IMG/VR virus record: IMGVR_UViG_3300005842_000485
Location: 26,566 to 90,565 of that record
From: a virus
Length of the DNA stretch: 64,000 bases
Direction: 5' to 3' (one strand)
In this document: positions 40-63,215 of the stretch, one piece after another
Numbering within the stretch: the first letter of the stretch is position 1
Layout: the number at the start of each line of letters is the position of its first letter
Notes under the pieces: generated by a model
Told to the model about the DNA's origin: nothing
The model's input: the letters and a program-made list of their open reading frames with translations, nothing else
Databases searched by the model: none
Translations under genes and position numbers: made by a program

Positions 40-378
40 GTGAGCCAACGAAGGTTCGTGAACGTCCTCGCGACGGCGGAGAATCTGGCACCGACGGCCC
101 GGTTCTGTACGATCATCGGTGACTCCATGTCCCCCGTGCTGGAATCGGGGTGGGTCGTGCGTATCGACACGTCCAAGCTCCCGCAGCCGGGGGATGTTAC
201 GGCGGTATACATCGATGGCGAGGGCGGGATGGTGGGGTACTGGCAGGGCGGAAAGAAGCCCATGCTCGACAAGGCGAATCCCGCGTACGCATCGGTGGAT
301 CTGACAGCCAAAGGGACGTGGAAGGTTGTCGGTGTCGTGGTCGCCATTGTGAACGCGCCGATCCAATCTCGCGCGTGA
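40..378 (+). CDS. S24/LexA-like repressor C-terminal domain, probably without autocleavage lysine
   Basis: The 112-residue protein has the peptidase S24 fold signature: GDSMSP with the serine nucleophile at residue 29, then a hydrophobic strand and an NPAY motif near the C-terminus. In S24 repressors a lysine general base lies about 37 residues after the serine in a V-K-R segment; here that place reads V-G-Y (Gly66), so self-cleavage may be lost. No helix-turn-helix precedes it. An in-frame stop lies just upstream of the GTG start, so it is either a stand-alone domain or the end of a broken repressor whose front lies outside the window. It overlaps the leader of the methyltransferase downstream. 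Confidence 0.7.
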   Translation: MSQRRFVNVLATAENLAPTARFCTIIGDSMSPVLESGWVVRIDTSKLPQPGDVTAVYIDGEGGMVGYWQGGKKPMLDKANPAYASVDLTAKGTWKVVGVVVAIVNAPIQSRA

Positions 379-458
379 CGGCTATACTGGCTACGATTTT
401 TGTCGAGGGGCGTTCGTCGCCTGTCGCCGACACGTACGTTGTGGGGTTCGGAGGCGGT

Positions 459-2237
459 GTGGGCGTCCGTTCGGCCATCATCTCGAAAGCGAGTGATCCG
501 ATACAGGTGAAGAACCGGACGCTGTTCTTCGGCGACAACCTCAGAATCCTCCGAGAGAAGTTCCCTTCCAACGAGGGGTACTTCGACCTCATCTATCTCG
601 ATCCGCCGTTCAACTCGCAGGCGAACTACAACATCCTCTTCCGCGAAGGACTTGTGGATAGCCCCGCCCAAGTCCATGCCTTTGAAGACACATGGCACTG
701 GACGCCCGAGACGCAGGCGCTCTTCACTGAACTAGCATCCGAACCTCGCTACACACAGAAAGTCTCGGAGGTGATGCAGGGGCTCGAGAAGGTCATCGGC
801 CACAACGATGTCCTGGCGTACCTCACGATGATGGCTGTCCGGCTCGTCGAGCTCCACCGCGTCTTGAAGGAGAACGGCTCGCTCTATCTGCATTGCGACC
901 CGAGTGCAAGTCATTACCTGAAAGTCGTACTCGATGCCGTATTCGGACCGAAGTACTTTCGGAATGAAGTCGTGTGGAAGCGGAGCAGCGCGCACAGCAG
1001 TTCAAAGCGATACTCGCCGGTCCACGACACGATCCTCTTCTACACGAAGAGTGACGACTACACCTGGAACAACATCTATACGCCACTCCCGCAGGAGACG
1101 GCAGATGCTTGGTATAACAACGTCGAAGCAGATACTGGTCGGCGCTTCAACCGAGCCGATCTCACCGCAGCGGGAACACGCACAGGTCCCTCCGGCGCGC
1201 CGTGGCGAGGGATTGACCCGACCTCGAAAGGACGGCATTGGGCGATCCCTGGGTTCGTGAAGGACGTTGTGGCGGGATTGGAGACGCAGGCCGCGCTGGA
1301 TGCTCTCGACGCGGCAGGAAGAATCTTCTGGCCAAAGTCCACGGGCGGCGTGCCGATGTTGAAGCGGTATCTTGAAGAGGCCAAGGGCATCCCGCCGCTG
1401 GACACCATCACGGATATTAGCCCCCTGAACAACGTCGCTGCGGAACGGCTTGGCTACCCAACGCAGAAGCCGCAGGCACTCCTCGAACGGATCGTCACAT
1501 GCAGCTCGAACGTCGGTGACTGGGTGCTCGATCCGTTCGGCGGGTGTGGAACGACAGTCGCAGCAGCAGAAGCGCTCGATCGAAACTGGGTCATCATCGA
1601 CATCACGACGCTTTCGATCAATCTCGTGAAGCGACGGATTGAGAAGGCGTATCCCGACAAGGCGCTCGACATGACGGTGGACGGCTACCCGGCCGATCTC
1701 GCCGGCGCGCGGGAACTCTTCGACCAGGACCCCTACCAATTCGAGTATTGGTGTTGCGACCTTGTGAACGCGCAGCCAGCAGGCGACAAGCGCCAAGGCA
1801 AGATGAAGGGTGCCGATAGGGGGATCGACGGCATCATCACCATCGTTGAGCCCGCGGCGAATGGTGGAGTCCAGTACCGCAAGGTGATCGTCCAGGTGAA
1901 GGGCGGACACATTTCGTCGCCGCACCTTCGGGACTTCCGCGGCACGATCGATAGAGAACACGCGCTCGGCGGCGTGTTCATCACCATGGAGCCGCCCACA
2001 AAACCGATGGTGCAAGAGGCGACGGAGGCCGGCACTTTCACGTACAAGATGAACAATCAGAAGTTCCCCGTGATCCAAATACTCACGGTCGCGGAGTTGC
2101 TCGATGGAAAACGACCCAACCTCCCCAACGTCATTGCCTACGCAAAACAGGCGCAGCTTGCGACCGCCGTCCCTGAACAGGCGAGTCTCCTTGGCGGCGG
2201 GGCGTCGGCTCCTCCTCCGAAACGCCGTTCTCGTTGA
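459..2237 (+). CDS. Beta-class DNA methyltransferase with C-terminal Mrr-like endonuclease domain
   Basis: From the GTG at 459 the protein has 592 residues. Residues 48-51 read DPPF (catalytic motif IV). A target-recognition region follows, then LDPFGGCGTT near residue 356 (AdoMet-binding motif I); this order defines beta-class N6-adenine or N4-cytosine methyltransferases. After residue 430 comes a domain with GIDGI and, about 23 residues on, VQVKGG, the D-(E/Q)xK pattern of Mrr/PD-(D/E)xK nucleases. One chain may therefore methylate and cut, or the domain may only bind. The frame is open from 150, but its first part is antisense-like sequence over the S24 gene. GTG 459 has GGAGG four bases upstream; GTG 375 and 507 are alternatives. 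Confidence 0.85.
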   Translation: MGVRSAIISKASDPIQVKNRTLFFGDNLRILREKFPSNEGYFDLIYLDPPFNSQANYNILFREGLVDSPAQVHAFEDTWHWTPETQALFTELASEPRYTQKVSEVMQGLEKVIGHNDVLAYLTMMAVRLVELHRVLKENGSLYLHCDPSASHYLKVVLDAVFGPKYFRNEVVWKRSSAHSSSKRYSPVHDTILFYTKSDDYTWNNIYTPLPQETADAWYNNVEADTGRRFNRADLTAAGTRTGPSGAPWRGIDPTSKGRHWAIPGFVKDVVAGLETQAALDALDAAGRIFWPKSTGGVPMLKRYLEEAKGIPPLDTITDISPLNNVAAERLGYPTQKPQALLERIVTCSSNVGDWVLDPFGGCGTTVAAAEALDRNWVIIDITTLSINLVKRRIEKAYPDKALDMTVDGYPADLAGARELFDQDPYQFEYWCCDLVNAQPAGDKRQGKMKGADRGIDGIITIVEPAANGGVQYRKVIVQVKGGHISSPHLRDFRGTIDREHALGGVFITMEPPTKPMVQEATEAGTFTYKMNNQKFPVIQILTVAELLDGKRPNLPNVIAYAKQAQLATAVPEQASLLGGGASAPPPKRRSR

Positions 2238-4359: not shown

Positions 4360-5331
4360 ATGAAGAAATCAAAAGCGCTTCTCCTGGTCTTGGCCGCTGC
4401 GTTGCTCTCCACCTCACCTGTCTTCGGGTGGAATGCCAGAGGACATGAGGCGGTCGCGGCGATCGCATGGGACAACATGCAGCCGGCGACGCAAAAGAAG
4501 GTCACGGAAATCCTGAACGCGGCGAAGGCGGGGGACTGCCTGCACGAGCTCGGGACGGGATTTGATGCACGAACGTTCTTTATCAAAGCCGCGACGTGGC
4601 CCGACGTCGTCCGGCCGGGCGATAACGACACGCGGCCGTGCACGAAGTTCCATGATCGAGACGCACACTTCTTCGATCACTTTTGGTCAGGAGTCTCGGG
4701 CGGCAAGGACGACGAAGCTCCGAAGGCGCTAATCATTGTCCCCAAGAAGAGGCCTACGACGAACGCAATCGAACGGGTCTACGAGTTTCGTCCGCTGGTG
4801 GCGTGCAAGAAAACGCCGTGCTGTGGAACGCCGGCTGATCGTGCGCATGACCTCGCATGGATGCTCCATCTCGTCGGGGACATCCACCAGCCGTTGCACA
4901 ACGCGGCGCGCGTTACCACGGAACCGAAGGAGAAGGAGGGTGACCACGGAGGAAACCTCTTCCTCTTGAAGAAAGGCACGATTCCAGACAACCTCCACAG
5001 CTTCTGGGACGAGATCATCGACGAGTCCATCCCGCGAAATGGCGAAGCGGAGATGGTGTACATCAACCGGGTCATCAAGCAGATCCAAGCGGATCACCCC
5101 AAGGCATCGCTCGCGGCGCGCATGCAATCAGGGGATGTTGGCGCGTGGTCGGCAGAAGGACTCGCGACGGCGGAGCGGATGGGGTATCCGAAAGCGTTGC
5201 AGCGTGGCGAAACCCCGAGCGACGAGTATCGCAAGGCGGTATTTACGGTTGCTGACGAGGCGATTGCGCTTGGCGGCTACCGGCTCGCGGACTTGCTCGA
5301 CAACATGTTCGGTACGGCAGCGAATCCGTAG
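4360..5331 (+). CDS. Secreted S1/P1-type zinc nuclease
   Basis: The 323-residue protein has a signal peptide (residues 1-23). The predicted mature protein begins with Trp24, which in P1 nuclease is the zinc-binding first residue. The family motifs follow in order: WNARGHE, HLVGDIHQPLH, GDHGGN and HSFWDE. Such enzymes cut single-stranded DNA and RNA and remove 3'-phosphates. Exported from the cell, it could degrade extracellular or periplasmic nucleic acid for nutrition, or act on rival phage DNA. It is not a usual virion component and stands alone between divergent or convergent units, as cargo would. Length is normal for bacterial members. Confidence 0.92.
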   Translation: MKKSKALLLVLAAALLSTSPVFGWNARGHEAVAAIAWDNMQPATQKKVTEILNAAKAGDCLHELGTGFDARTFFIKAATWPDVVRPGDNDTRPCTKFHDRDAHFFDHFWSGVSGGKDDEAPKALIIVPKKRPTTNAIERVYEFRPLVACKKTPCCGTPADRAHDLAWMLHLVGDIHQPLHNAARVTTEPKEKEGDHGGNLFLLKKGTIPDNLHSFWDEIIDESIPRNGEAEMVYINRVIKQIQADHPKASLAARMQSGDVGAWSAEGLATAERMGYPKALQRGETPSDEYRKAVFTVADEAIALGGYRLADLLDNMFGTAANP

Positions 5332-14089: not shown

Positions 14090-14119
14090 AGCGTAGGGGC
14101 GGGCTATGGAAGCGGTCAA
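14090..14119 (-). promoter_or_regulatory. Late-type promoter before fibre gene
   Basis: On the minus strand TTGACC, an 18-base spacer and TACGCT. The predicted transcript starts about 20 bases before the fibre ATG. Same layout as six other sites in the virion module. Confidence 0.6.
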
Positions 14120-22709: not shown

Positions 22710-23225
22710 TTAGAGGGTCGGGAGGAAATAGCTCTTGGCGTGAAGCGCTTGCTGAACGCCGATGCGAAGGGCCTCGAGGACGCGTTCTTCACCGAGCTTC
22801 AGGACGGGAGCGACCGACTGCTCAAACCAGTGCTTCGCTTGGATGCGCGTCGTGCCGCGTTCCGTGAACCATCCGTAGTTCACTTTGGCGCGACGTACCT
22901 TGCGGCGGCTGAACAGTTGCTCTGCTTCAAAGGCGACCTGCGCGCGCGCATTGCGGGGGTCGGCGGAGAACCGCGCGGAGAGGCCATCCGCGTTCGTGCT
23001 CGGGTCAACGCCGATGGATGATCGCAGTTGCCCGGTCGCGACGGGCGCTGCATGCCTGGCAGCGAGCACCGCGTCATCCGCTGCGTCATAGAGGGCGCGA
23101 CGGACATTGAGACCGATGAAGGTAGAGGAGCCGAAGTCGAGCAGTTCACCGCCAAGAGCTTCCAACCCGGCCGCTGCTTCGGCGACCCCCTGGACGTTCA
23201 CCGAGATGTAGTCGGTCGAGGGCAC
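22710..23225 (-). CDS. HK97 gp10-like tail component
   Basis: From GTG 23225 the protein has 171 residues, with VNVQGVAEAAAGLEALG near the start and RRALYDAADDAVLAARHAAPVATGQLRSSI, the pattern of HK97 gp10-family proteins that help join or end the tail. Further N-terminal reading is through Arg/Pro-rich sequence that belongs to the frameshifted chaperone in another frame. It lies between chaperone and tape measure, which is unusual, since gp10 is more often upstream of the tail tube. Confidence 0.7.
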   Translation of the reverse strand: MPSTDYISVNVQGVAEAAAGLEALGGELLDFGSSTFIGLNVRRALYDAADDAVLAARHAAPVATGQLRSSIGVDPSTNADGLSARFSADPRNARAQVAFEAEQLFSRRKVRRAKVNYGWFTERGTTRIQAKHWFEQSVAPVLKLGEERVLEALRIGVQQALHAKSYFLPTL

Positions 23226-23235
23226 AAGGGAGGGA

Positions 23236-23783
23236 TTAGCGCTTCGCTCGGCGGGACTTCCGTTCGAGCGCTTCGAGCTCGGCTTCGGGGGATCGCGCTC
23301 TAGCCTTAGCTTGCGGCGTGTTCTCCGCCTCGGCAATCAGGATGCGACGGAACATCTGCACCTTCTCGGCCGGGAGCTGGTAGATGCCCACGCCGAACTC
23401 GCGCACCATGCGGAGTTCGTCGATGGCCGGATGGCCGTGGCCGCGCCTTACCGCTTCTTCGAGGTCTCTCCTTTTGGGCTTTCTGGATCGTTCGCGGCAT
23501 TCGCGGCGCTGTAGAGCGCGGCAACGGCTTCCTCAAGCCGCTTTCCGTCCTTCGGCGAGAGCTGTTTGATCGCGTCGAGGCTGATGCCCTTGGGGATCAC
23601 GGAAAGCATGGCGTTCCTGCGCGCGGTGATGTAGCTGCCGTCGATCTTCCGCTCACTCGTCTCGGGGTCGAACTGGATCGCGGCGTTGCCGGCATCCTCA
23701 ATCGCGAGCATGTCGCCGTAGGAGAGCGCGAGGGCAACATCCGTGTTGGCATCGTCGAGGTGGACGGTCGTAGGAGAGTCCAT
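23236..23783 (-). CDS. Tail assembly chaperone, frameshifted long form (G-T type)
   Basis: A -1 slip at CCCAAAA (23472-23478) joins the first 104 codons of the short chaperone to 78 codons in the -1 frame (KRRDLEEAVRRGHGHPAIDELR...RRAKR), giving 182 residues. The extension has no start of its own and is well-formed protein sequence. In lambda-like phages G and GT bind the tape measure and recruit tail tube protein; the position immediately before the gp10-like and tape measure genes fits this. Confidence 0.8.
23448..23783 (-). CDS. Tail assembly chaperone, short form (G type)
   Basis: The 111-residue zero-frame product (MDSPTTVHLDDANTDVALAL...SPKGETSKKR) is acidic and helical, like other tail chaperones. 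Its ATG has a C/T-rich leader (CCAACCCTTCCTCCGC) with no Shine-Dalgarno site. The stop follows the slippery site within eight codons, as is usual for these pairs. Confidence 0.8.
   Translation of the reverse strand: MDSPTTVHLDDANTDVALALSYGDMLAIEDAGNAAIQFDPETSERKIDGSYITARRNAMLSVIPKGISLDAIKQLSPKDGKRLEEAVAALYSAANAANDPESPKGETSKKR
23472..23478 (-). promoter_or_regulatory. Slippery heptamer C CCA AAA for -1 frameshifting
   Basis: Read on the minus strand the site is C-CCA-AAA in the chaperone frame, which fits X-XXY-YYZ. The following GGAG may act in the mRNA as a further signal. Slippage leads directly into the open -1 frame. Confidence 0.8.
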
Positions 23784-27181: not shown

Positions 27182-27211
27182 ACGCTACGGCGCGGAGCGG
27201 AACGCGGTCAA
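27182..27211 (-). promoter_or_regulatory. Late-type promoter
   Basis: TTGACC, 18 bases, TAGCGT on the minus strand. The predicted transcript starts about 20 bases before the ATG at 27154. The -10 region GCGCCGTAGCGT is the same as in the promoter at 27929. Confidence 0.65.
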
Positions 27212-27928: not shown

Positions 27929-27958
27929 ACGCTACGGCGCGTATTCGATGGCGGTCAA
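27929..27958 (-). promoter_or_regulatory. Late-type promoter
   Basis: TTGACC, 18 bases, TAGCGT. The predicted transcript starts about 24 bases before the fibre-like ATG. Confidence 0.65.
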
Positions 27959-31232: not shown

Positions 31233-31262
31233 ACGTTGCGTGTCGCGGAGCCGGACGGTCAA
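31233..31262 (-). promoter_or_regulatory. Late-type promoter before protease
   Basis: TTGACC, 18 bases, CAACGT. The same layout as the other late-type sites. It lies after a palindrome and after the cargo gene, so protease transcription can be independent of it. Confidence 0.55.
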
Positions 31263-34715: not shown

Positions 34716-34745
34716 ACCCTAGCGGTGCTTGCGGAAGGCCGTCGA
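34716..34745 (-). promoter_or_regulatory. Weak late-type promoter before portal
   Basis: TCGACG, 18 bases, TAGGGT. One mismatch to the -35 consensus. The predicted transcript starts about 18 bases before the portal ATG. Confidence 0.45.
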
Positions 34746-34748
34746 GCC

Positions 34749-36341
34749 TTAGCCGTCGAACGTGAAGGTGGAAACCATGGAGGCGAGGCCGACTTCCTCG
34801 GCGAGCATAAGGCAGTAGACGACGACATCCATCGCGTCATCGTGCTTCGGCTTGATCTTGCCGTCTCGGGTGTAGCCGCAGACCTCATCGACCGCGAAGG
34901 CATGCTTTTGCTTCTGCATGTAGACGCGGCCTTGCTCGAACGTCGGCTGGTGCCTGGTGAGCCGGAAGATCTTGTCGGTGACCGGGCGTAGCTCGCGGGT
35001 CGGGATTGAGAGGCCTGCGGCGGTTGCGGCGCGGTCGATGCCTTGCTTGAGCGCTTTCTGGTACATGACAGTCTCGATGCCGAGCGTCTGGATGCGATCT
35101 CCGACGCGCTGCCGCCATTCGACGTGCTTCTGTACTGCCCCCGTCACTTGGCGGTCGTAGGGCATCCGGTCGTGGATGAAGTCGAGGAACCACCGCGTCC
35201 CGTTCGGGTGCGCGGCCATGACCCCCATGGCGAAGAAGTCGGCCGTGTTCTTCTCCGAGATGGCCGGATCGATGGCTTCATACAGCAGGCATTCCGAGAG
35301 CTTCACGACCACGCCGTTGTGGCCGATGAGGTACGTCTCTGTTTTGCCATCTTCGACCACGGTCTCCAGCCGGAAGTCGTGGATCTGCGTGGGCGTGACA
35401 ATCTGGTTGCCCGATGCAACCGGCTCGCTCTGGAACTCGGTCGCGAACCGTGTCGATCCGATCAGGCGACGGGTGCTCCAGAGATCGAAGTAGTCGTGGC
35501 GCGCCGGCCACAGCACCACCGCACCCGTATCCATCGCATCCCGATGCGCTTCGTAGAATGCGCGCGAGGCGTCCACACCCACGCCCCCGTCGTTCTGCGC
35601 TCGGGCCCAGACGACGGCGCACTCCTCCCAGAGGGCTTGGTTGGTGGGCTCGCGGATAATCGCTTGCTTCTTGATGACCTGGTAGCCGCCAGACGCGGCC
35701 ACGCGCGCCATCGCTGCGTCTTCGTGCAGCATCGTTCCGACCCAGATCACGCGTCCGACGTGCGGATCGCGCATCGGGAAGATCTCGGCTTCCCACCACT
35801 CTTGCGTGTTGTCGCGCAGGTCGGTGGTGGCGATGGTCTTCAGGTTCTCAATGTCGTCGCCGAGAACGAGATCAGGACGCTGTTCCTCGTCACGAGACCC
35901 ACGGTCAGAGGAGCCGTGCGACGAACAGGAAATCTGGCCACCGGAGGCGAAGACTAGTTCGTGCCCGTTGTCCGTCTCGATCTTGAGTTCTTGGCCGAAG
36001 TCACGGAGAAGTCGCGCATATCGGCCGTTCTTATTGGTGGCCGCACGGCGGATGTTGCGCAAGATCTTCGTGGCCTGCTTGTCGGTTTCGGAGAAGAGGA
36101 TCTGGTAGCGCTTCCTAGCTGTGACGTGATTCCAGAGTGGATAGATCAGCGACACCCACGTGGTCTTCGCGTGGTCGCGCGGCCAGTAGACGACGAGATG
36201 CCCATTGCCGCCTTGGAGTTCCTTGATGATCTCCAGGTGGAAGTCCGGAATCGGGCCAGAGATGTAGTGTGGGAAGTAGTACGCGCCGAAGACCGCAAGA
36301 GAATTGCGGGCAATCTTCCGCGCTAGCCTCGGTACGAACGT
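34749..36341 (-). CDS. Terminase large subunit, probable non-ATG start
   Basis: The ATPase has Walker A-like WPRDHAKTT, Walker B LVLGDD (then IEN), and a nuclease domain with AIDPAISEKNTADFFA and HDDAMDVVVYCL. The first ATG/GTG/TTG in frame (GTG at 36155) lies after the Walker A lysine, so it cannot be the true start. The frame is open upstream to a stop at 36366-36368 with no standard start. ACG at 36341 is my best candidate: it lies about 20 bases after the predicted transcription start behind a C/T-rich leader and gives 530 residues, normal for TerL. ATT 36314 is a second choice. Confidence 0.85.
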   Translation of the reverse strand, partial: TFVPRLARKIARNSLAVFGAYYFPHYISGPIPDFHLEIIKELQGGNGHLVVYWPRDHAKTTWVSLIYPLWNHVTARKRYQILFSETDKQATKILRNIRRAATNKNGRYARLLRDFGQELKIETDNGHELVFASGGQISCSSHGSSDRGSRDEEQRPDLVLGDDIENLKTIATTDLRDNTQEWWEAEIFPMRDPHVGRVIWVGTMLHEDAAMARVAASGGYQVIKKQAIIREPTNQALWEECAVVWARAQNDGGVGVDASRAFYEAHRDAMDTGAVVLWPARHDYFDLWSTRRLIGSTRFATEFQSEPVASGNQIVTPTQIHDFRLETVVEDGKTETYLIGHNGVVVKLSECLLYEAIDPAISEKNTADFFAMGVMAAHPNGTRWFLDFIHDRMPYDRQVTGAVQKHVEWRQRVGDRIQTLGIETVMYQKALKQGIDRAATAAGLSIPTRELRPVTDKIFRLTRHQPTFEQGRVYMQKQKHAFAVDEVCGYTRDGKIKPKHDDAMDVVVYCLMLAEEVGLASMVSTFTFDG

Positions 36342-36367
36342 ATGGGGCGAATGTGAATGCTGCCCTT

Positions 36368-36397
36368 ACGCTGCCTATGGCTTACGGGAGCGGTCAA
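36368..36397 (-). promoter_or_regulatory. Late-type promoter before large terminase
   Basis: TTGACC, 18 bases, CAGCGT on the minus strand. It sets the probable 5' end of the TerL mRNA near 36361. Confidence 0.55.
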
Positions 36398-36410: not shown

Positions 36411-36983
36411 TCAGCCGCGCGTGGGATTAGGGCCTTTCGGTAGATCAATATGGAACACGAAGCGAGCGATGGCGAGCAGGGTTCCACCGACGACCAACCC
36501 CACCCCGAGGCCGCAGCGAAACTCGAACGGCAGTCTCGTCAGGAACACGAGGATTGGCGAGAAGGCGAGTGCGCCCAGCCCTTGGACCCAGTGCAGAACG
36601 TAGAGCCAGCGCGTTTGGCGTATCACCGTGCGCTTCACGTCGATGCGGCCGCCATCGGACTCCCAGAGACCGGTGTCCATGTCTTCGATCCGCTTGGTCA
36701 GTGCTTCGTGGAGTCGAGCCGCTCGGCTTGCCTCGGCCGACTGGATGTACGCGACGATGCCCGTCACCACCGCATACGCAGCAAATAGCCCAGCCGTGCC
36801 TCCGGCCGCTGAGAGCAGGAACGAGCGGTAGCGGATGAGCGGGAGAATGAAGGCGAGCGCTGCACCTGTCGTCGCTACAAGGAGGTAGACAGAGGCGAGG
36901 CGACCCATCCGCCACGCCACGACAACCACCGGGTTTCGGTCCTCAGGGATTGGACGGACAATTTGAATTGCGCTGAGGTTCAT
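36411..36983 (-). CDS. Membrane protein, four hydrophobic segments
   Basis: From ATG 36983 the 190-residue protein has hydrophobic segments around residues 28-48, 54-78, 125-145 and 152-175, with a polar loop containing KRIEDMDTGLW. Its start overlaps the preceding stop (ATGA). With its neighbour it forms a membrane-gene pair between the terminases, a place where holins are sometimes found. No endolysin lies next to it, so a lysis role is speculative. Confidence 0.65.
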   Translation of the reverse strand: MNLSAIQIVRPIPEDRNPVVVVAWRMGRLASVYLLVATTGAALAFILPLIRYRSFLLSAAGGTAGLFAAYAVVTGIVAYIQSAEASRAARLHEALTKRIEDMDTGLWESDGGRIDVKRTVIRQTRWLYVLHWVQGLGALAFSPILVFLTRLPFEFRCGLGVGLVVGGTLLAIARFVFHIDLPKGPNPTRG

Positions 36984-44895: not shown

Positions 44896-45807
44896 TCATT
44901 CGACGGTTGATGCAAGCGCTTCGCGCGTCGTGCTCTGTAGTTCCATCGCGTCAATGATCGAGGATGCTGCGTGGTGAATGCGGTCAGCGGAAGCGGCAAT
45001 CTTCTTCGTGTCGCCGTCCGACCACGACGATACGTACGGAAACGTGTATTCCGAGGTGTCCAGGCCGTAGTAGTTCAGAACGACGAAGGCCACGGACTCC
45101 GCTTCTAGCTCGCGTTGCTCCTTCGGGATCTCGTCGGTTGGGATCCCCACGTGCATGGCGACGTGTGCCTTCTCGTGGATAAGGGTCTTCACGGCTTGCA
45201 AGTCGTCCACGCCTTCACGGGTGACGACCTTGCCGGTCTCCTTCGAGACGTAGCCGTAGTGCCGGCCGACAAGATGCTCTTCGCCGACTTCATAGCCGTC
45301 GCTCCCGAGGACGCGGGTGATCGTGGCGCGCAGTTCTTGAATCTCCTCGGAGGTGCCGCGTAGCTCGTGGATGATCTCGGGGACGGGATCGCCCTCGGTT
45401 TGGCTGACATCGAAGACGTAGCCGGTGATGAAGCGGACGCCACTCTCCTCGGGTGTGTCGTCTGTGGTTTCTTCCTGGGCGGCGTTCTTGCCCTTCTTGT
45501 ACGTGCTCGGGACAAGAATCATCAGGCCGTGCTCACCCTTCTTTACGGAGCGGTTGTGCTGTTGCCATTGCCGGAATCCCATGACGAGGGATGCACTCGG
45601 CATCTGTGAGTAGATGAGGAGCGTGTTCTTGAAACTAAAAGCTCGGGTGTGCTGCGCAAGGAATGTCAGATAGGCGCGGTACTGCTCGGAGTCGCGGAAC
45701 GATTCGACGCCCCGTTCTAGCATGTCGTGAGCGGCGCGGAGCTTCGCTTGCTTCTGCTCGAGCCACGTCTCCCGGTCGAAGTCTGTTTTGGGGGTACGGC
45801 GAGCCAC
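44896..45807 (-). CDS. ArdC-like antirestriction protein
   Basis: The 303-residue protein has an N-terminal part (AFSFKNTLLIYSQMP, VMGFRQWQQ, KKGEHGLMILVP) of the ArdC ssDNA-binding type and a metallopeptidase-like C-terminal part with HEKAH at residues 211-215 and a downstream glutamate (ELEAES). ArdC proteins protect incoming single-stranded plasmid DNA from restriction. It is last in an operon with a zinc protein and the macro-domain gene. Confidence 0.88.
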   Translation of the reverse strand: MARRTPKTDFDRETWLEQKQAKLRAAHDMLERGVESFRDSEQYRAYLTFLAQHTRAFSFKNTLLIYSQMPSASLVMGFRQWQQHNRSVKKGEHGLMILVPSTYKKGKNAAQEETTDDTPEESGVRFITGYVFDVSQTEGDPVPEIIHELRGTSEEIQELRATITRVLGSDGYEVGEEHLVGRHYGYVSKETGKVVTREGVDDLQAVKTLIHEKAHVAMHVGIPTDEIPKEQRELEAESVAFVVLNYYGLDTSEYTFPYVSSWSDGDTKKIAASADRIHHAASSIIDAMELQSTTREALASTVE

Positions 45808-46100: not shown

Positions 46101-47408
46101 CTATATGGCTTGCTTTGAATCGAGGAGTTGCGACAGCGGGGACTCGCCGAGGAACTTCGCGTCGCGGCCGTAGAACAGCACGCGGTCATCAACGAAGAAC
46201 ACGAGGACGCCGAGCTTGGCGAAGTCGGCGTACCAGTGCGCGACTTCGATTCCAGCGACCTTTGCGATTTCGAGGTAGAACAAGCAGTCGGTCTGCCAGT
46301 CGTACTGGTAACAGAGTTCGCTCCGGAGTTTGCTCCGGAGTTTGCTCCAGAGTTTGCTCCGGAGTTTGCTCCGGAGTTTGCTCCAGAGTTTGCTCCGGAG
46401 TTTGCTCCAGAGTTCGCTCCCGAGTTCGCTCCCGAGTTCGCTCCGGAGTTCGCTCCGGAGTTCGCTCCGGAGTTTGCTCCGGAGTTTGCTCCAGAGTTCG
46501 CTCCCGAGTTTGCTCCCGAGTTCGCTCCCGAGTTTGCTCCCGAGTTCGCTGGCCGTGGGTAGATCGGTCGCGTGAACGATCAGCCGATGGTCGGCCTTAT
46601 AGGAATCGGTGCTTGCGAGCAGTTGCTTGCCGCGCGGCCCCCACGCGACAGAGACGGGAAGCTCGGCAACGGTGCGGAGCCGTGAGACGCGCACCTTATC
46701 GTCGCCCATGCCGCAGCGGTCTTCTTGTTCGTAGGTGCAAAAGAACACGCGATCGGGAACGTTGTAGTTCCCGGCGCCGGCGAGGGTGTGTCCGAGGTGG
46801 AGACCAGTGCCACACTCGCTGCCATCCTTCTCCGCGGCCGGCTCCTGCGTGACCTTCCCGACACGGTACAGGGCATGTTTGCCGGTGTCGCGGGAAGTGG
46901 CGAAGCTCTGTCCCTTGGCGTCGGTGTACTTGAAGCCGTACCTGATGCCCTGCCATTCGCAAAGCGCGACAAGGAGCAGCCATACGAAGTCGTCTTCATC
47001 GAGGCCGCCGATACCAGTCCCAAGTCCAGAAAGGAGGAGCGTTTCGCCGGGGTTGATGCTCTTGAGCGCGAAGGCGAGCGCGCCCGCAACGAGCGGGCGC
47101 GAGGAGCGCAGCGATGCATCAACGGTGACGGTAAAGATGATGTCGTCGATACGCTGATTACCGGCTTCCCGGTCAATCCGCGCACATACATCCGGATAGC
47201 GATGGGCGATCTGTGCGTCGAGGCCGCCGCCCATGGTGAAATTGGGGTTGGACGCAGAAGCAATGACGCCTTCGAAGGAGAAGATGTCCCCGGTTTTCGT
47301 CTCAACCGGGACATCGAGAGGAAGGTATTTGAGCGCCTTGGAAACCTTGGCGATGAGAGATCGGTTGCGATCAATGACGAGAATACGGGGTTGTTTGTTC
47401 CGGGGCAC
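46101..47408 (-). CDS. Macro-domain protein with tetrapeptide repeat insert
   Basis: Residues 30-145 (ETKTGDIFSFEGVIASASNP, GGGLDAQIAHRYP, TLLLSGLGTGIGGLDEDDF) match macro domains, which bind ADP-ribose or related products. A second domain with CGTGLHLGHTLAGAGNYNVP follows. Residues 287-365 are a (S-K/E-L-X) repeat encoded by a 12-bp tandem repeat. A C-terminal domain with FLYLEIAKVAG-like sequence ends the protein. It is the first gene of an operon with a zinc protein and ArdC, so a role against NAD- or ADP-ribose-based defence is plausible but unproven. Confidence 0.8.
   Translation of the reverse strand: MPRNKQPRILVIDRNRSLIAKVSKALKYLPLDVPVETKTGDIFSFEGVIASASNPNFTMGGGLDAQIAHRYPDVCARIDREAGNQRIDDIIFTVTVDASLRSSRPLVAGALAFALKSINPGETLLLSGLGTGIGGLDEDDFVWLLLVALCEWQGIRYGFKYTDAKGQSFATSRDTGKHALYRVGKVTQEPAAEKDGSECGTGLHLGHTLAGAGNYNVPDRVFFCTYEQEDRCGMGDDKVRVSRLRTVAELPVSVAWGPRGKQLLASTDSYKADHRLIVHATDLPTASELGSKLGSELGSKLGSELWSKLRSKLRSELRSELRSELGSELGSELWSKLRSKLWSKLRSKLRSKLWSKLRSKLRSELCYQYDWQTDCLFYLEIAKVAGIEVAHWYADFAKLGVLVFFVDDRVLFYGRDAKFLGESPLSQLLDSKQAI
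46314..46550. repeat. 12-bp tandem repeat, 19 full copies and one partial
   Basis: Units read GAGTTYGCTCCN on the plus strand, with third-position changes T/C in the middle and G/A/C at the end. Each unit adds four residues to the macro-domain protein without changing the frame. Neighbouring units differ in patches, as expected from slippage or unequal crossing-over. CTCCGGAG palindromes form where the last base is G. Confidence 0.95.
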
Positions 47409-51467: not shown

Positions 51468-54400
51468 TTAGAACAATGAGATTTGTGCTGCGGCCGTGAT
51501 CGGAACCGGGATGATGGCCGGCTCGGGATCGACGACTAGGGCAACCGGGAGAACGGACCCGGGAACGTAGACGGCGCGGGGCTTCTTCGTGATGCGCCTT
51601 GCGACTTCGAGTTGGGCGGCGTTCGTCGCGCGTTCCAAGATGTCTGCGACGGTGGCGTACCGCGCCGTGCCGTCGATGGCTTCTCGGAGCGCTTGGAACT
51701 TCGCGCCGCATAGGTTATGCATGTCCTCATCAATCGTGCCGCCCGAGAGCAGGATGTACTCGTAGCACTCCTTTACCTGGCCGGGGCGGTGGATGCGACC
51801 GCAGACCTGTTTGAGAATCTCCGGCGACCACTCGAGCGCGAGCACGATGATGTGGTTCGCGCCGATGATGTCCAGCCCGCGCGCGATGGCTCCCATGCTC
51901 GCGAGGAGCACCGGAGTCTCGTCGCGGTTGAACTCCTTAATCAGCTCGTGGCGCTTCTTCATGGACACGCCAGCGGTAACCTGCGTAAAGCCGATGCGCT
52001 CACGTTTGAGGCGAATACCCACCGCTGCGAGGAGTGGTCGAAGGGGCGAGGTGACGATCACCTTGTCGCCGCGAGATCGGATGTCGCGGATGAGCCGCAA
52101 CGTCTCCTCGATCTTTGCGGTTGTCGCGCCGCTCGGCAACGCGATCTGCGGACATTCGGGATGGTCGCGGACAAGATGTTCTCGCGCCGTGGGATCGGAA
52201 GCAGCGAAACGGAGTGACCACAAGCACTGTGAGATCACGCCCATGTTCACGTCTTCGTTCTGATGCTGCGCGAGCTCGCGGTTGATGCGATCCGTTGACC
52301 ATGATTCGTAGGCGGCGTAAAGCTGCGCCTGATCCGAGAACATCCCACAGCGAGCGATCTGGGGCGGGTGCTTCGTCGGGAGCGTTGCCATCTCGCCGTC
52401 CACGCGCCGAACCATGAATGGCGCCATCATCCGAGAGAAGAGGTTGAGGCTTGAGACTTCGGGGAGCATCAATGCCTTGCCGACGTGCAAGGTTTCCTCG
52501 TACTCGCGCGTGACGAACTTGAACGTGGCGTAGCAATCGAGAAAGCGTTTTGATCCTCCTTTGTAGCTGTACGGGAACAGCGGGTTATCCCAACCGAGCA
52601 GCCAGGAGATCGTCCAGAACACGTCGGTGACGTAACCCTTGAACAACGTGGCTGATAGGACGTACCGACCCTTGGACTTGAACGAGCGGAGGGCTTGTCC
52701 TCGCAGCGAGAGTTTGGACTTGGCGACTTGCGCCTCGTCCGCGATGACGCACGAGAAGAGCTTGGACAAGGATTTGTAGGCCGGCCGCTGGCGGCGTGCG
52801 CCGTCGTAGCTGTAGGCCACAAAGCCGCAGGCGTGGCAGACGTGGCCCGTCCACTGTTCCGCGTCTTCGCACTTTGGACAGGAACGGACAGCGACTTCAT
52901 ATTCGGTGCCGCACTCGCAGGTTTCGGATGTGATGCCCGTCGCTTCGTGACGTACGGCACCGTCTTTATCGAACTTCACGCAGTCCCACGGCTCGAACGT
53001 CTTGCTGCCATCGAGCGCGAGGAACTCATAGCTGGTGATCCAGAACCCCGTTGGCTTCGAGCCGGAGCGAATCTGCTCACGCAGGTCTGAAACGGCACGG
53101 TGTGTGTCGAGCCGATGCCCGACCACGCCGAATTGCTGACAGGCTTCGAGCCACTTTTCCACGAGACGTGACTCGCAGATGACGAGGGTGCGTTGGTACT
53201 GCCGGGCTTTGGCGACGGCGGTAGAAACAGGTGTCTTGCCTCCCCCGACTTCCCAAGCGATGTAGGCGCGCGGTTTCGTGATGAGACGCGCGCCGTCTTC
53301 GTTCTGGTAGTCGAACAGATGCGGCGCTTGTCGCGAGAGCAGGTCGCGGTTGCGTTCTACTTCCTCGGCGAGCAAGTCATCTACGTCCTCGATGACGGGG
53401 AGCGCGAAGGCGCGCAGGAACAGCGAGACGGCGGTTTCATCGACTTCCGCGACATCGAGCAGGCCCGCGTCCGTTTCCACCTGCAGGAGAAGGTAGCCGC
53501 GGTCGATCTGGGTAATCACCCGCTCGTCACGGTCTTTCGATTCGTTCCGTACCGTCTCCTCCGCAGCGGTCTCGCGTTTGCGAATCCACGTCGGGTGAAT
53601 GCGATACGAGACGCCTTCGCGCCAGAGCACGGATGCTTCGGCGCCCGGCATCAGGGCAACGCCGGTGTCGGTGGCGCGCACACCCATGGAGACATCCGCG
53701 ATTGCGGGGTACGGCTTGTCGTCGAAGTAGCCGATGAGCTGATGCGGCTTCGGGCGGTAGAGCGGGATCGAGAGACGCGTGTAGCGTTTCTGTTGCCGCG
53801 CGATCTTCTCCTTCGCTCGTTCCGTGATGGCCGGTTCAAACCCGAGATTCGAGAGTGCCGCGAGCGCTTCATCCGCTCCGCGCTTGATGAGCGCGGGTGG
53901 TGAACAATACGCATCGATAACTCCGACCCGGACGCCTTGCACGGGTGAATACACCTGCACGGTGGCGTTCAGGAAGTCGAGCATCGCCTTAGCCGAGAGG
54001 TCAGCGGTGATGCCCTTCTCGGACAGCGTGACGGCGTTCGTCTGCGGCAGTCTGACCAAGAGATTCACTTGCGGCAGATCGAGCGCGGTGACGAGCGGAA
54101 CACCGTAGTCCGGCATCGCGTCACTGATGACGACCCCCAAGCGGTCAGAGAAGTTGTGTGTGAGCGCGTCCAGCGCGTGAAGCGTCGGCTCGCGGCTCTC
54201 CCGCCCGTACTCGCGGTGTCCCGCTTTCGTGGCGACGACGAGATCGACGGAGACGTCGATGCCGTATTCCTCGGTAAACGCGTGGGCGACCGTGATGCGC
54301 GCGCGGAGGTCGAACTGCTTATAGAGCGTGGTCCGCAGCGCGGCATCTTTCCCGTTCTCGAACGTCGAGGACGGGATGATGGCAACGAGCAGACCGTTCT

Positions 54401-54947
54401 GCGTGAGCGCACGCGCGCAGAGTTCGAGCGTGAACGCTTGAGACTCCACGGAGCCGTGCTGGTTCACTGTCTCCCAGCCTTCGGTGGTGGGGACGTTCCA
54501 CCAGATGCCAAAGGGCGGATTCGTGACGATGACGTTCGCCCCCTCGTCGTACGGCAGACCCTTGAGGATCTTCCGGTACAAGAGGAGATCGCCGACGCGG
54601 ACGTTCTTCGAGAGTAGGTTGCGTTTCGCAACCGCCGCCGAGTCTTCGTCCATCTCGACGCCGAGCACCTGCGCGCCGGACGCGCGGAACGGCAAGAGCA
54701 GGCGGCCGGAGCCACACGTCGGGTCGAAGACGACGAGATCGGCGGGTGTCGTCACTGTCGCGCGGCCGTTGCCGTTGTAGCCGCGATGCGGCTGCGTGAC
54801 ATGCCCGAGCACCGCGTCCGCGATGACCTGGCAGATCGTGGTGCTCGTGTAATAGCTCGCGTGACTGCTGGCGTTCCAGCGACGAAAGCCGAGGTTGTGA
54901 TTCGAGTCGCGTCCAGAGAACGCGAGATCAGGCGCAAGGTCTGTCAT
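51468..54947 (-). CDS. N6-adenine methyltransferase-Snf2 helicase fusion
   Basis: The 1159-residue protein starts with an N6 methyltransferase: FDPTCGSG at residues 74-81 (motif I) and NPPF at 143-146 (motif IV). The second half is an SF2/Snf2 motor: GGGKT near residue 569, four cysteine pairs near 690-720 (a zinc finger), DEAQ near 736, LSAT, and GRIHRPGQ near 1050. The end, QISLF, matches the sliding-clamp motif. The layout resembles P1 DarB-type proteins that protect phage DNA from restriction. AGAAGGAG precedes the ATG, which overlaps the previous stop. Confidence 0.88.
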   Translation of the reverse strand: MTDLAPDLAFSGRDSNHNLGFRRWNASSHASYYTSTTICQVIADAVLGHVTQPHRGYNGNGRATVTTPADLVVFDPTCGSGRLLLPFRASGAQVLGVEMDEDSAAVAKRNLLSKNVRVGDLLLYRKILKGLPYDEGANVIVTNPPFGIWWNVPTTEGWETVNQHGSVESQAFTLELCARALTQNGLLVAIIPSSTFENGKDAALRTTLYKQFDLRARITVAHAFTEEYGIDVSVDLVVATKAGHREYGRESREPTLHALDALTHNFSDRLGVVISDAMPDYGVPLVTALDLPQVNLLVRLPQTNAVTLSEKGITADLSAKAMLDFLNATVQVYSPVQGVRVGVIDAYCSPPALIKRGADEALAALSNLGFEPAITERAKEKIARQQKRYTRLSIPLYRPKPHQLIGYFDDKPYPAIADVSMGVRATDTGVALMPGAEASVLWREGVSYRIHPTWIRKRETAAEETVRNESKDRDERVITQIDRGYLLLQVETDAGLLDVAEVDETAVSLFLRAFALPVIEDVDDLLAEEVERNRDLLSRQAPHLFDYQNEDGARLITKPRAYIAWEVGGGKTPVSTAVAKARQYQRTLVICESRLVEKWLEACQQFGVVGHRLDTHRAVSDLREQIRSGSKPTGFWITSYEFLALDGSKTFEPWDCVKFDKDGAVRHEATGITSETCECGTEYEVAVRSCPKCEDAEQWTGHVCHACGFVAYSYDGARRQRPAYKSLSKLFSCVIADEAQVAKSKLSLRGQALRSFKSKGRYVLSATLFKGYVTDVFWTISWLLGWDNPLFPYSYKGGSKRFLDCYATFKFVTREYEETLHVGKALMLPEVSSLNLFSRMMAPFMVRRVDGEMATLPTKHPPQIARCGMFSDQAQLYAAYESWSTDRINRELAQHQNEDVNMGVISQCLWSLRFAASDPTAREHLVRDHPECPQIALPSGATTAKIEETLRLIRDIRSRGDKVIVTSPLRPLLAAVGIRLKRERIGFTQVTAGVSMKKRHELIKEFNRDETPVLLASMGAIARGLDIIGANHIIVLALEWSPEILKQVCGRIHRPGQVKECYEYILLSGGTIDEDMHNLCGAKFQALREAIDGTARYATVADILERATNAAQLEVARRITKKPRAVYVPGSVLPVALVVDPEPAIIPVPITAAAQISLF

Positions 54948-55546: not shown

Positions 55547-56692
55547 TTACGCGGCGTCGAGGAGAGGTATTTGATACGGAACGACTTGGATGTGGGGCTC
55601 AAAGTTTGGAGACGAAGGCAATGACGAACGCGGAGGCAGCGGGGATGCAACGCCGATGCGCTGTTCTGCGAGTCGCAAGTAATCGGGGTTCAACTCAATC
55701 CCGATGAAGGAACGACCTTCTTCGCGCGCAACTTGGCCGGTCGTGCCGCTTCCCATGAAGGGATCGATTACGACGCCATCACGCGGAGCACCAGCGAGAA
55801 TGCACGGACGAATCAAATCCGGTGGGTACGTGGCGAAGTGCGCGCCTTTGTACGGCCGCGAGGCGACCGACCAAACCGAGCGGCGATTTCGAGTAAGCCA
55901 AGGGACGTTAGCTACCTTGAGAAGCCCCGCCTTTGTCCGATGTTCTTCCGTGGCCGACGCGTCGTACGCGTTGACGTACTTATGACTCTTGTTGCCAGAA
56001 ATGCGAGGCTTCATCGAGGCTCTGCCTAGTTGATGTGCGCCTGTCTTTCCAGTGTGGAACTCGCTGCCAGCGGAGCCACGCGACGCGGGTTCCTGCATGG
56101 AAGCAGTGTCGAAGTAGTACCGCGGGGACTTCGAGAGAAGGAAGATGTACTCGTGCGCTTTCGTGCAACGGTCTGTCACGCTTTCAGGCATCGGGTTCGG
56201 CTTAGCCCAAATGATGTCTTGGCGAAGGCGCCAGCCGTCCGCTTGTAGGGCAAGCGCAACGCGCCAGGGTACTCCGAGCAAATCTTTCGGCTTCAAACCG
56301 ACTTGCCTCCCACGTCTGACGGGATTCGTGTTGATCGGCGGCATAGAAGAACGAAGTGTCGATTTGTCGCGTCCTCCGGTTGCCCCGTTGCCGCCTGTCG
56401 TGGTGTTCGCGTACGAGTCACCGAGATTTAACCAAAGGGTGCCGTCGTCGCGTAAGACACGCCGCACATCTCGAAAGACGGAGACGAGCCGACAGACATA
56501 GCAGATGCGGCAGGAGTCCCGAGTGGCCCACCCCAAGCAGTCAGCGGTGTTTTCAGCGCCTAGCTGCCCCCGAACACCGTAGTCCCGGAGGCCGAAGTAC
56601 GGCGGCGATGTAACGCATGTCTGCACCGACCCGGAAGGAATGTCCCGCAGCCGATCAAGGCAGTCACCGAGGAGTAGTTGCACATCAGACAT
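55547..56692 (-). CDS. Beta-class DNA methyltransferase (TSPPY type)
   Basis: From ATG 56692 the 381-residue protein has [12 protein letters not shown] near residue 32 (motif IV), a cysteine cluster ([16 protein letters not shown]) that probably binds zinc, and [10 protein letters not shown] near residue 306 (motif I). This is the order of N4-cytosine or N6-adenine methyltransferases common in phages. No partner endonuclease is seen next to it, so it is likely an orphan enzyme protecting phage DNA. It closes the operon that begins at 57540. Confidence 0.9.
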
Positions 56693-57053
56693 CGCGACCT
56701 GCGTTAACGCACCTAGAGCAGCCCTTAAGGCCTTCTTTCGTATGTGCTGGGTAGAAGTCATAGATTTCAAGTGCGTTTCGTAGCGCGTTCTCCTGCTCCC
56801 AGGCGCCAGCTACGCGATTGCGACCATGCGCTCTGGCAGCGGACTGGGACGTCATCGAGTGCGTGCGCCGAATCGCACGTTCGTGGGACGCAGCGGCCGT
56901 CTTGAGTTCTCCGGCAGTCTCGGAGAGCCGGAGTTCAAGCTCGCGCCGTGTGTAATTTGATGCGAGGACTCGCGACCAGTCGCTGTATTCGTCGTAGCGC
57001 CAAGTCACTTGCGGCGGAGTGGCGGGGACGAGGAGGGGTTGAACGTCAGGCAT
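56685..57053 (-). CDS. 122-residue protein coupled to methyltransferase
   Basis: From ATG 57053 the product has a Pro-rich start, a helical region rich in Arg/Glu ([20 protein letters not shown]) and a C-terminal CSRC pair. Its end overlaps the methyltransferase start. Unknown. Confidence 0.6.
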
Positions 57054-58015: not shown

Positions 58016-59158
58016 TCACGCGACGAAGAGGGGCAGGCGAAGCGTCATCGGCCGGTCGTCTTTGCGGCCGGTGACTTGTGAGAACACGGGCGCGGTAATG
58101 CGAGACGCGAGATGGGCAAAGATCGGCGTCCCGTCTGCAACGGGCAGGTCTTTCAGGAAATGATCGCGGCTCCACTTCTCTCCGGTGGGCTCGTCTCCTA
58201 AGTGGAGATCAGCGGAACGGGTCATGAGGAAGAGGCCCGTTCCTTTCTTGGGAAGCTTTTCGGAAATCACGTCTTCAATCATCCGCGCGTGCGCGTCCGT
58301 CTGACAGTGGAAGAGCACGCGGAATGAGGTCATCCCATGCGCGCCGGTCATTGCCGCGACGCTTTCAACGCCTTTCTCGCGGTTGAGGAGCAAGTACCGA
58401 TCAACCTTCTCGATGATCTTGTGTCGCGCGGATGTTCCCGTCTCTGCTTCCAGCGCGAAGCCGAACTCTCCGATGGTGAAGAACCCGTCCGGCTCGATGG
58501 TCTGGCGCTTGCCGTCATGCTCAAAGGAGAGGTTCACGGCACCGTCCCCAAGGATGTTCTCGACCGCCGCGCCCATCTGCCGGGCACCGAACCAAAGAAT
58601 CGAGAGCACTGTGGAGGCGAGGATGCGGTGGCGCACATCGGAGGGCTCGTCGCTGATGAACTTCAAGGCGAGGTCGGTGTTGTATTGGAGCATGGCGTCC
58701 ACGCGATCCGCAGGGAGTCCTTGTTCCGTGAGCATCTCAAGGAGCCGCTTGCGAAGCGGGGCTGCGGTCTTCGCCACCGCCTCGGCTTGTTCGTCTGGAA
58801 GCGCGAGGTAGTGCATCCGGAGGCGGGCGACTTCTTGGGCGCGCCCCGTTTCGAGCGTGTAATAGAAATGCCGGGAGCCGGGGAGGTAGCGCCCGAACTT
58901 CGGGTCGAAGCGGGAGAGCCAGCGCGCATTGAAGAGTGCCGTGAGGCGCTTGATCCAGTTCACCATGCCGAGTTCCCCGCTGGCATACGCGGAGAGGTAG
59001 AGCGCTTGCGCCTTCGCAAATCGCAGGTGGAAGAGATCGACCAGCACCGCAATATCACGCGCCTGGAGGACGAGCGAGCGCGGCGCGGACGGGTGGTAGC
59101 GGGATCGGCGCGTGGGGAGAGACATGCGTGGAGACGCGAGGGGATCAGCGCTAGTCAT
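58016..59158 (-). CDS. Replication-relaxation family protein
   Basis: The 380-residue protein has the layout of this plasmid/ICE family: an N-terminal winged-helix-like region (ARDIAVLVDLFHLRFAKAQAL, YLSAYASGELG) and a domain IEPDGFFTIGEFGFALEAETGT that resembles the endonuclease-like fold of the family. These proteins are found with VirD4-like ATPases on mobile elements. Its start overlaps the ATPase stop (ATGA), so the two probably work together. Confidence 0.75.
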   Translation of the reverse strand: MTSADPLASPRMSLPTRRSRYHPSAPRSLVLQARDIAVLVDLFHLRFAKAQALYLSAYASGELGMVNWIKRLTALFNARWLSRFDPKFGRYLPGSRHFYYTLETGRAQEVARLRMHYLALPDEQAEAVAKTAAPLRKRLLEMLTEQGLPADRVDAMLQYNTDLALKFISDEPSDVRHRILASTVLSILWFGARQMGAAVENILGDGAVNLSFEHDGKRQTIEPDGFFTIGEFGFALEAETGTSARHKIIEKVDRYLLLNREKGVESVAAMTGAHGMTSFRVLFHCQTDAHARMIEDVISEKLPKKGTGLFLMTRSADLHLGDEPTGEKWSRDHFLKDLPVADGTPIFAHLASRITAPVFSQVTGRKDDRPMTLRLPLFVA

Positions 59159-62337: not shown

Positions 62338-62534
62338 CTGGCGTTCCTTTCGGTTGTCCCGAACGCGATATGCGACGGGAGCGTGAAGGAAGCGTGCAGG
62401 ACGAGCGGCGGTGGCTGTCGAAGCACGTCGAAGGGAGGCGATTGGCGGGGAGTCCCGGGACGGCTACGGTGGGAGTGCGGCCCTTTTCCAACCAGGAACC
62501 CTACTACCGCACCGGCAAGGCACGAGGAGGCGAT

Positions 62535-63215
62535 ATGCCCACGCAGCGGTATCTCTTCGACCAGATGAACGAAGCGCAGGGGGCGATCCTGCGTGACGAG
62601 GAGCCGTCGTATCGGCTATTCGAGCACGGCAGCGCAACGCTCTCCGATTCGGAACTCGTCGCGCTTGTGACCGGTCGGCCTGTAGAGGAAGCACGGATGT
62701 TCCTTCGAGACGGCCTGCCGTCGTTTGCGCGACGTCCATGGGGTGCGGGCCGGCGGCACCAGATCGGGAGGACGGTCGCTGTGCGGATCGCCGCGAGCTT
62801 GGAGCTTGGGCGGCGCGTGGCGATGGCGACCATCGAGTTTGGCGACACCGTATGTGTTGAGGACTTGGGGCCGTTCCTCGCAACCCGCTACGGTGATGCG
62901 GTGCAAGAGCACTTCGGCGCCGCATTTCTCAATGCGCGCCGGGGGATGATCGCACTCCGAGAACTGTGCGTCGGGACGCTGAACTCCGCGCTGGTCTCTC
63001 CACGTGAGGTCTTGCGGAGCGCGCTCGAACTCCATGCCGCAGGGATCATCGCGTACCACAACCATCCAAGCGGCGACCCGTCACCATCAGTCGAAGATCT
63101 CACCGTGACGATGAAGCTGCGGAACGCAGCCAAGAACATGGACATCGACTTCATCGACCACGTGATCGTGGCGAAGCGTCGGTACTACTCCATGGCCAAG
63201 CACGGGCACTTCTAA
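62535..63215 (+). CDS. radC: RadC-like JAMM-domain protein
   Basis: The ATG has GAGGAGG upstream. The C-terminal domain of this 226-residue protein has LHAAGIIAYHNHPSGDPSPS, the JAMM metal site (HxH and Asp) near residue 175, as in RadC/UPF0758. The N-terminal helical region (LSDSELVALVTGRP) is a reduced HhH part. Common on mobile elements; the enzymatic role is still unclear. Confidence 0.9.
   Translation: MPTQRYLFDQMNEAQGAILRDEEPSYRLFEHGSATLSDSELVALVTGRPVEEARMFLRDGLPSFARRPWGAGRRHQIGRTVAVRIAASLELGRRVAMATIEFGDTVCVEDLGPFLATRYGDAVQEHFGAAFLNARRGMIALRELCVGTLNSALVSPREVLRSALELHAAGIIAYHNHPSGDPSPSVEDLTVTMKLRNAAKNMDIDFIDHVIVAKRRYYSMAKHGHF

What the first reader, a model, noticed from the sequence alone, without database searches (positions are those of the whole stretch)
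34749..36368. Large terminase frame with no standard start codon
The frame runs from the stop at 36366-36368 to the end of TerL, and the first ATG, GTG or TTG is the GTG at 36155, which is after the Walker A region (WPRDHAKTT). The skipped 60 residues are clearly TerL-like (ARNSLAVFGAYYFPHY...). The late-type promoter at 36368-36397 places the mRNA 5' end near 36361. ACG at 36341 lies about 20 bases later behind a C/T-rich leader, the same spacing as for portal and fibre starts. A true ACG (or AUU) start would reduce terminase synthesis by design; an assembly error is the alternative.
Basis: seen in the sequence. Interest (0 to 1): 0.75.

Follow-up and report, generated by a model that had tools for sequence, protein, structure and literature searches.

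The report
Phage terminase gene starting at ACG
In this uncultured temperate phage, the gene for the DNA-packaging motor has an intact body and a phage-style promoter, but at the place where every comparable late gene of the phage has ATG or GTG it carries ACG; this is either a rare weak start codon or a single wrong or mutated base, and one sequence record cannot decide which.

Summary
On the minus strand the large-terminase frame is open from the TAA at 36366-36368 to 34749, and its first ATG/GTG/TTG is GTG 36155, just after Walker A. The protein is a genuine TerL (PHROG 38, E 2e-78; confident AlphaFold model, terminases as top PDB matches). With three looser copies, nine promoters have a start site 25-34 nt after the -10 box. 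Eight carry ATG or GTG; terL carries ACG at offset 26, behind the same C-rich, Shine-Dalgarno-free leader. Structure supports position 36341 (disorder ends at residue 8; ACG is residue 9), as does, weakly, homology beginning before the alternative AUU at 36314. A TTG/frameshift start is unlikely: that TTG is the promoter's -35 box. Codon usage just after ACG is mildly against it. Site 36341: about 80% likely. Whether ACG is a maintained weak start (about 42%) or a T-to-C error or start-loss mutation (about 40%) is undecided; 'by design' is unsupported. No close relative was found.

The parts
34749..36341 (-). terL coding region if translation starts at ACG (530 codons plus stop)
36339..36341 (-). 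ACG, the proposed start codon (residue 9 of the stop-to-stop frame)
36366..36368 (-). TAA that closes the terL frame upstream
36391..36397 (-). -35 box TTGACCG of the late promoter; contains the only nearby upstream TTG
36368..36374 (-). -10 box GCAGCGT of the late promoter
36342..36361 (-). predicted 5' leader, C-rich, G-poor, no Shine-Dalgarno pairing (mRNA 5' end inferred)
36312..36314 (-). ATT, the rival near-cognate start (residue 18), 53 nt after the -10 box
36153..36155 (-). GTG, first standard start codon in the frame, after Walker A
36159..36185 (-). Walker A region WPRDHAKTT (residues 61-69)
34721..34746 (-). portal promoter-like site CTCGACG-N16-GCTAGGG (26 of its 30 bases listed, 34717-34746 in full); ATG 34691 follows 25 nt after it
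31233..31262 (-). late promoter TTGACCG-N16-GCAACGT; GTG 31199 follows 33 nt after it
27929..27958 (-). late promoter TTGACCG-N16-GTAGCGT; ATG 27898 follows 30 nt after it
27182..27211 (-). late promoter TTGACCG-N16-GTAGCGT; ATG 27154 follows 27 nt after it
14090..14119 (-). looser late promoter TTGACCG-N16-CTACGCT; ATG 14063 follows 26 nt after it

Best explanation
The terminase gene starts at 36341, and its codon there is ACG. The late promoter at 36368-36397 would yield an mRNA with a C-rich, SD-free leader of about 20 nt; the ribosome would initiate at ACG with the initiator tRNA (one mismatch, at codon position 2), less efficiently than at ATG, giving Met-FVPRLARKIARNSLAVFGAYYFPHY... Shown here: the frame, the TerL identity, the promoter set, the spacing and the leader type. 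Inferred: the mRNA 5' end, use of ACG, and lower output. That low output is useful (few terminase subunits are needed per capsid) is speculation.
For: Nine promoters of one kind; eight are followed 25-34 nt later by ATG/GTG, and terL has ACG at 26. The strict motif has 6 matches, all on one strand, and 0 in 40 simulated genomes (the pattern was fitted to these sites). The leader up to ACG has 11% G, 42% C and no SD pairing, like the other late leaders. In the AlphaFold model residues 1-8 have pLDDT below 50 while residues 11-20 average 87 within a helix 7-21; ACG is residue 9. Profile homology starts at residue 16, before AUU at residue 18. ACG is the only codon one change from ATG before residue 13. 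Frames elsewhere in the late region are intact, so the assembly is not generally poor.
Against: The eight codons after ACG score -4.2 in this phage's codon usage, nearer to upstream sequence (mean -3.4, sd 5.0) than to late-gene N-termini (mean 1.9, sd 3.2). With only three in-frame codons in the 25-34 nt window, one being near-cognate by chance is not rare. ACG without an SD would be expected to initiate very poorly in standard bacterial systems (own knowledge). About 90 relatives all have a standard start available. No second copy or close relative confirms the base.
Confidence: 0.42

Rival explanations
1. The start codon at 36341 is or was ATG; the C at 36340 is a consensus or assembly error, or a recent start-loss mutation in the sampled genome (for example a decaying prophage).
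For: Promoter spacing and leader put the start exactly at 36341, where all eight sister genes have ATG or GTG; one T-to-C change accounts for everything. The phage is temperate by its integrase, so the source may be a prophage. SD-free ACG is expected to be very weak.
Against: Neighbouring late frames are intact, so there is no sign of a generally poor assembly. No reads or variants could be examined.
Confidence: 0.4
2. Translation starts at AUU 36314 (residue 18), an accepted rare bacterial start codon.
For: AUU is in table 11's list of starts. Codon usage becomes normal from about there. Predicted anti-SD pairing upstream is -5.9 kcal/mol.
Against: It lies 53 nt after the -10 box, against 25-34 nt in the other eight genes; the leader would be 46 nt with 26% G, unlike the others. 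It would cut the confidently predicted first helix and drop the matched residues 16-17.
Confidence: 0.07
3. Translation starts at TTG 36397 and reaches the terL frame by a -1 shift, or by a missing base, in the CCCC run at about 36345-36348.
For: The TTG frame is open from 36397 through the C run and overlaps the terL frame.
Against: That TTG is the -35 box of a well-supported promoter, upstream of the expected mRNA 5' end. The part of the terL frame before ACG is not predicted to be folded.
Confidence: 0.04

Closest known systems
Large terminases of PHROG 38 (Mu-like phages such as JBD26, RcapMu, BalMu-1)
   Same: ATPase and RNase H-like domain layout; 25-28% identity over nearly the whole protein
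   Different: Most relatives have 40-70 residues before the Y(F/L)PHY motif; here the segment is about 20 residues from ACG, and no standard start codon is present
Non-AUG starts of bacterial table 11 (CTG, ATT, ATC, ATA)
   Same: Near-cognate initiation, expected to be of low efficiency
   Different: ACG is not in that list; its mismatch to the initiator anticodon is at the middle position (own knowledge)
ACG initiation in eukaryotic viruses (Sendai virus P/C mRNA, cited in PMC9845219; AAV VP2 from own knowledge)
   Same: Same codon, used there to make a product from a non-AUG site
   Different: Eukaryotic scanning ribosomes; here a bacterial ribosome and, so far, sequence evidence only

Membership tests
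Phage large terminase (TerL) | Sequence profile match | tested here: met
   PHROG 38, E 2.1e-78, residues 17-523; Pfam Terminase_6C just below its cut-off
Phage large terminase (TerL) | Walker A and acidic Walker B residues | tested here: met
   WPRDHAKTT, with K67 invariant, and LVLGDDIEN, with D170 invariant
Phage large terminase (TerL) | RNase H-like nuclease acidic residues | tested here: met
   D366, E431 and D510 invariant in 46 sequences; nuclease-domain matches in PDB
This phage's late gene set | Promoter TTGACCG-N15/16-GYARCGT with a start site 25-34 nt later | tested here: met
   -35 perfect, -10 GCAGCGT, ACG at 26 nt
This phage's late gene set | C-rich, SD-free leader | tested here: met
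   11% G, 42% C, anti-SD pairing energy +1.7
This phage's late gene set | ATG or GTG start codon | tested here: not met
   ACG at the site
Functional non-AUG start | Protein N-terminus or initiating ribosome at the codon | not testable with these tools
   needs proteomics, ribosome profiling or a reporter
Functional non-AUG start | Codon conserved in relatives | tested here: inconclusive
   no relative above about 29% identity found

The most novel reading that the evidence does not exclude
A phage uses ACG as the maintained start codon of its packaging motor behind an SD-free C-rich leader, so that start selection on its late mRNAs depends on leader type and distance from the 5' end more than on SD pairing or an exact AUG, and terminase dose is set by the weak codon.
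Probability: 0.15. Interest if true: 0.75.

Novelty: new variant of a known kind. Interest (0 to 1): 0.4.

Why it matters
ACG lies outside the bacterial start-codon list that gene finders use, so such genes are annotated truncated or missed; a genuine case in an essential phage gene would show that bacterial ribosomes can use it where the dose may be low. If the base is instead wrong or mutated, the same analysis shows how a lost start codon can be placed from promoter spacing and leader type.

Tried and rejected
Start at GTG 36155: lacks Walker A. Fusion to the upstream ORF: it is in the same frame, but TGA 36411-36413, TAG 36375-36377 and TAA 36366-36368 intervene. TTG 36397 plus frameshift: it is the -35 box. 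The window TerL, portal and capsid as single queries, and a portal alignment in genome contigs, gave no relative; alignment searches of viral contigs gave TerLs of at most 29% identity and two portal relatives whose neighbourhoods hold no relative of this TerL. Motif scans of IMG/VR returned one distant TerL relative, nothing, or single promoter matches not linked to this lineage. RNA folding of the 5' end is unremarkable (z 0.10). The generic sigma-70 scan found no site in 24-42 kb, since the -10 departs from TATAAT. A first 14-member TerL alignment was too divergent to search with.

Full report
Observation. On the minus strand the frame containing the terminase is closed upstream by TAA 36368-36366 and open to the TAA ending at 34749. 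The first ATG, GTG or TTG is GTG 36155, directly after the Walker A stretch WPRDHAKTT, so a protein starting there could not be a working motor. The window is bases 26566-90565 of a 90,565-base virus record.

Identity. The frame matches PHROG 38 (terminase large subunit, E 2e-78) from residue 17; Pfam's Terminase_6C hits just under its cut-off. Relatives are distant: about 25-28% in annotated phages and at most 29% in IMG/VR. An AlphaFold model on 46 sequences has mean pLDDT 91, and its best PDB matches are large terminases (PhiV-1, T4 gp17, HK97, D6E). Portal, Mu F-like, scaffold and P22-type coat genes follow downstream.

Promoter set. The motif TTGACCG-N16-GTAGCGT is clear upstream of several late genes. 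The strict form TTGACC[AG]-N15/16-G[TC]A[AG]CGT has six matches in the 90.6-kb record, all on the minus strand, and none in 40 first-order simulated genomes; the pattern was fitted to these sites, so the figure overstates the significance somewhat. Two looser members (-35 at window 14119 and at record position 23420) and the portal's own (-35 at 34746) make nine; the portal's is the loosest and was found by eye. Distances from the -10 end to the start codon are 26, 29, 34, 26, 27, 30, 33 and 25 nt for the eight with ATG or GTG; in terL the codon at 26 nt is ACG. Reading TTGACC and TAGCGT as hexamers makes the motif sigma-70-like with a degenerate -10, so the expected mRNA 5' end is near 36361; this is inference.

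Leader type. The leaders of the promoter-linked late genes, and of most other late genes examined, are G-poor and C-rich with no Shine-Dalgarno pairing, while most early or other genes examined pair well. The terL leader up to ACG (19 nt, 11% G, 42% C) belongs to the first type. A leader reaching AUU 36314 would not (46 nt, 26% G).

Which codon. For 36341: spacing and leader; N-terminal model disorder limited to residues 1-8, with a confident helix over residues 9-21; profile homology reaching residue 16, before AUU at residue 18. Against: the eight codons after ACG, including the rare AGG and CTA, score -4.2 on this phage's codon-usage scale, nearer to upstream sequence (mean -3.4, sd 5.0) than to late-gene N-termini (mean 1.9, sd 3.2). 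A direct likelihood comparison of that stretch as coding or as leader is about even (-40.7 against -42.5), and plain background composition fits it better than either (-36.5). Short TerL N-termini do occur elsewhere: L107 has 23 residues before the corresponding region and L007 about 16. I put the start site at 36341 with about 80% confidence.

Is ACG used? This cannot be decided here. All of the roughly 90 relatives whose upstream region is not cut off by a contig end have a standard start available, so the case is exceptional. Two accounts predict the same sequence: a maintained weak ACG start, or a T-to-C error or recent start-loss mutation at 36340. Intact frames elsewhere in the late region argue against a generally poor assembly; the expected weakness of ACG without an SD argues against normal use. 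The integrase at the record's left end means the source may be a prophage, where single inactivating changes occur.

Known and not known. ACG initiation is documented in eukaryotic viruses (Sendai virus, cited in PMC9845219) but ACG lies outside the starts of bacterial table 11 (own knowledge). Searches of the held literature for phage or terminase cases returned nothing relevant; [quoted passage not shown] coli was not held. If real this is a new variant of non-AUG initiation; if not, it is a single-base artefact or mutation in an ordinary gene.

Noticed in passing
12957-36400, minus strand (late region): Most late genes have C-rich, G-poor leaders without a Shine-Dalgarno sequence, while most early or other genes of the same phage have clear SDs. 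How the late mRNAs recruit ribosomes is unexplained.
   Followed up: partly
14119, 27211, 27958, 31262, 36397, and record positions 23096, 23420, 24545 (all minus strand): A phage-specific late promoter family, TTGACCG-N15/16-GYARCGT, with a -10 that departs from TATAAT; no sigma factor or RNA polymerase was recognised among the proteins scanned.
   Followed up: partly
36411-36983, minus strand: Hydrophobic, membrane-protein-like ORF directly upstream of terL, in the same frame but separated by three stops; no PHROG match.
   Followed up: no
46266-46586: A run of about 18 overlapping register copies with a 12-nt spacing, i.e. a 12-nt tandem repeat, inside the ORF 46101-47408.
   Followed up: no
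L016:1-1278 (record left end) and window 150-2237, 44896-45807, 51468-54947, 55547-56770, 58016-59158, 62370-63215: Integrase at the record's end; methyltransferase/restriction-like, ArdC-like, helicase-methyltransferase, Replic_Relax and RadC genes give the record a phage-plasmid or integrative character.
   Followed up: no
4360-5331, plus strand: S1/P1 nuclease gene (Pfam E 3e-41) in a phage record.
   Followed up: no
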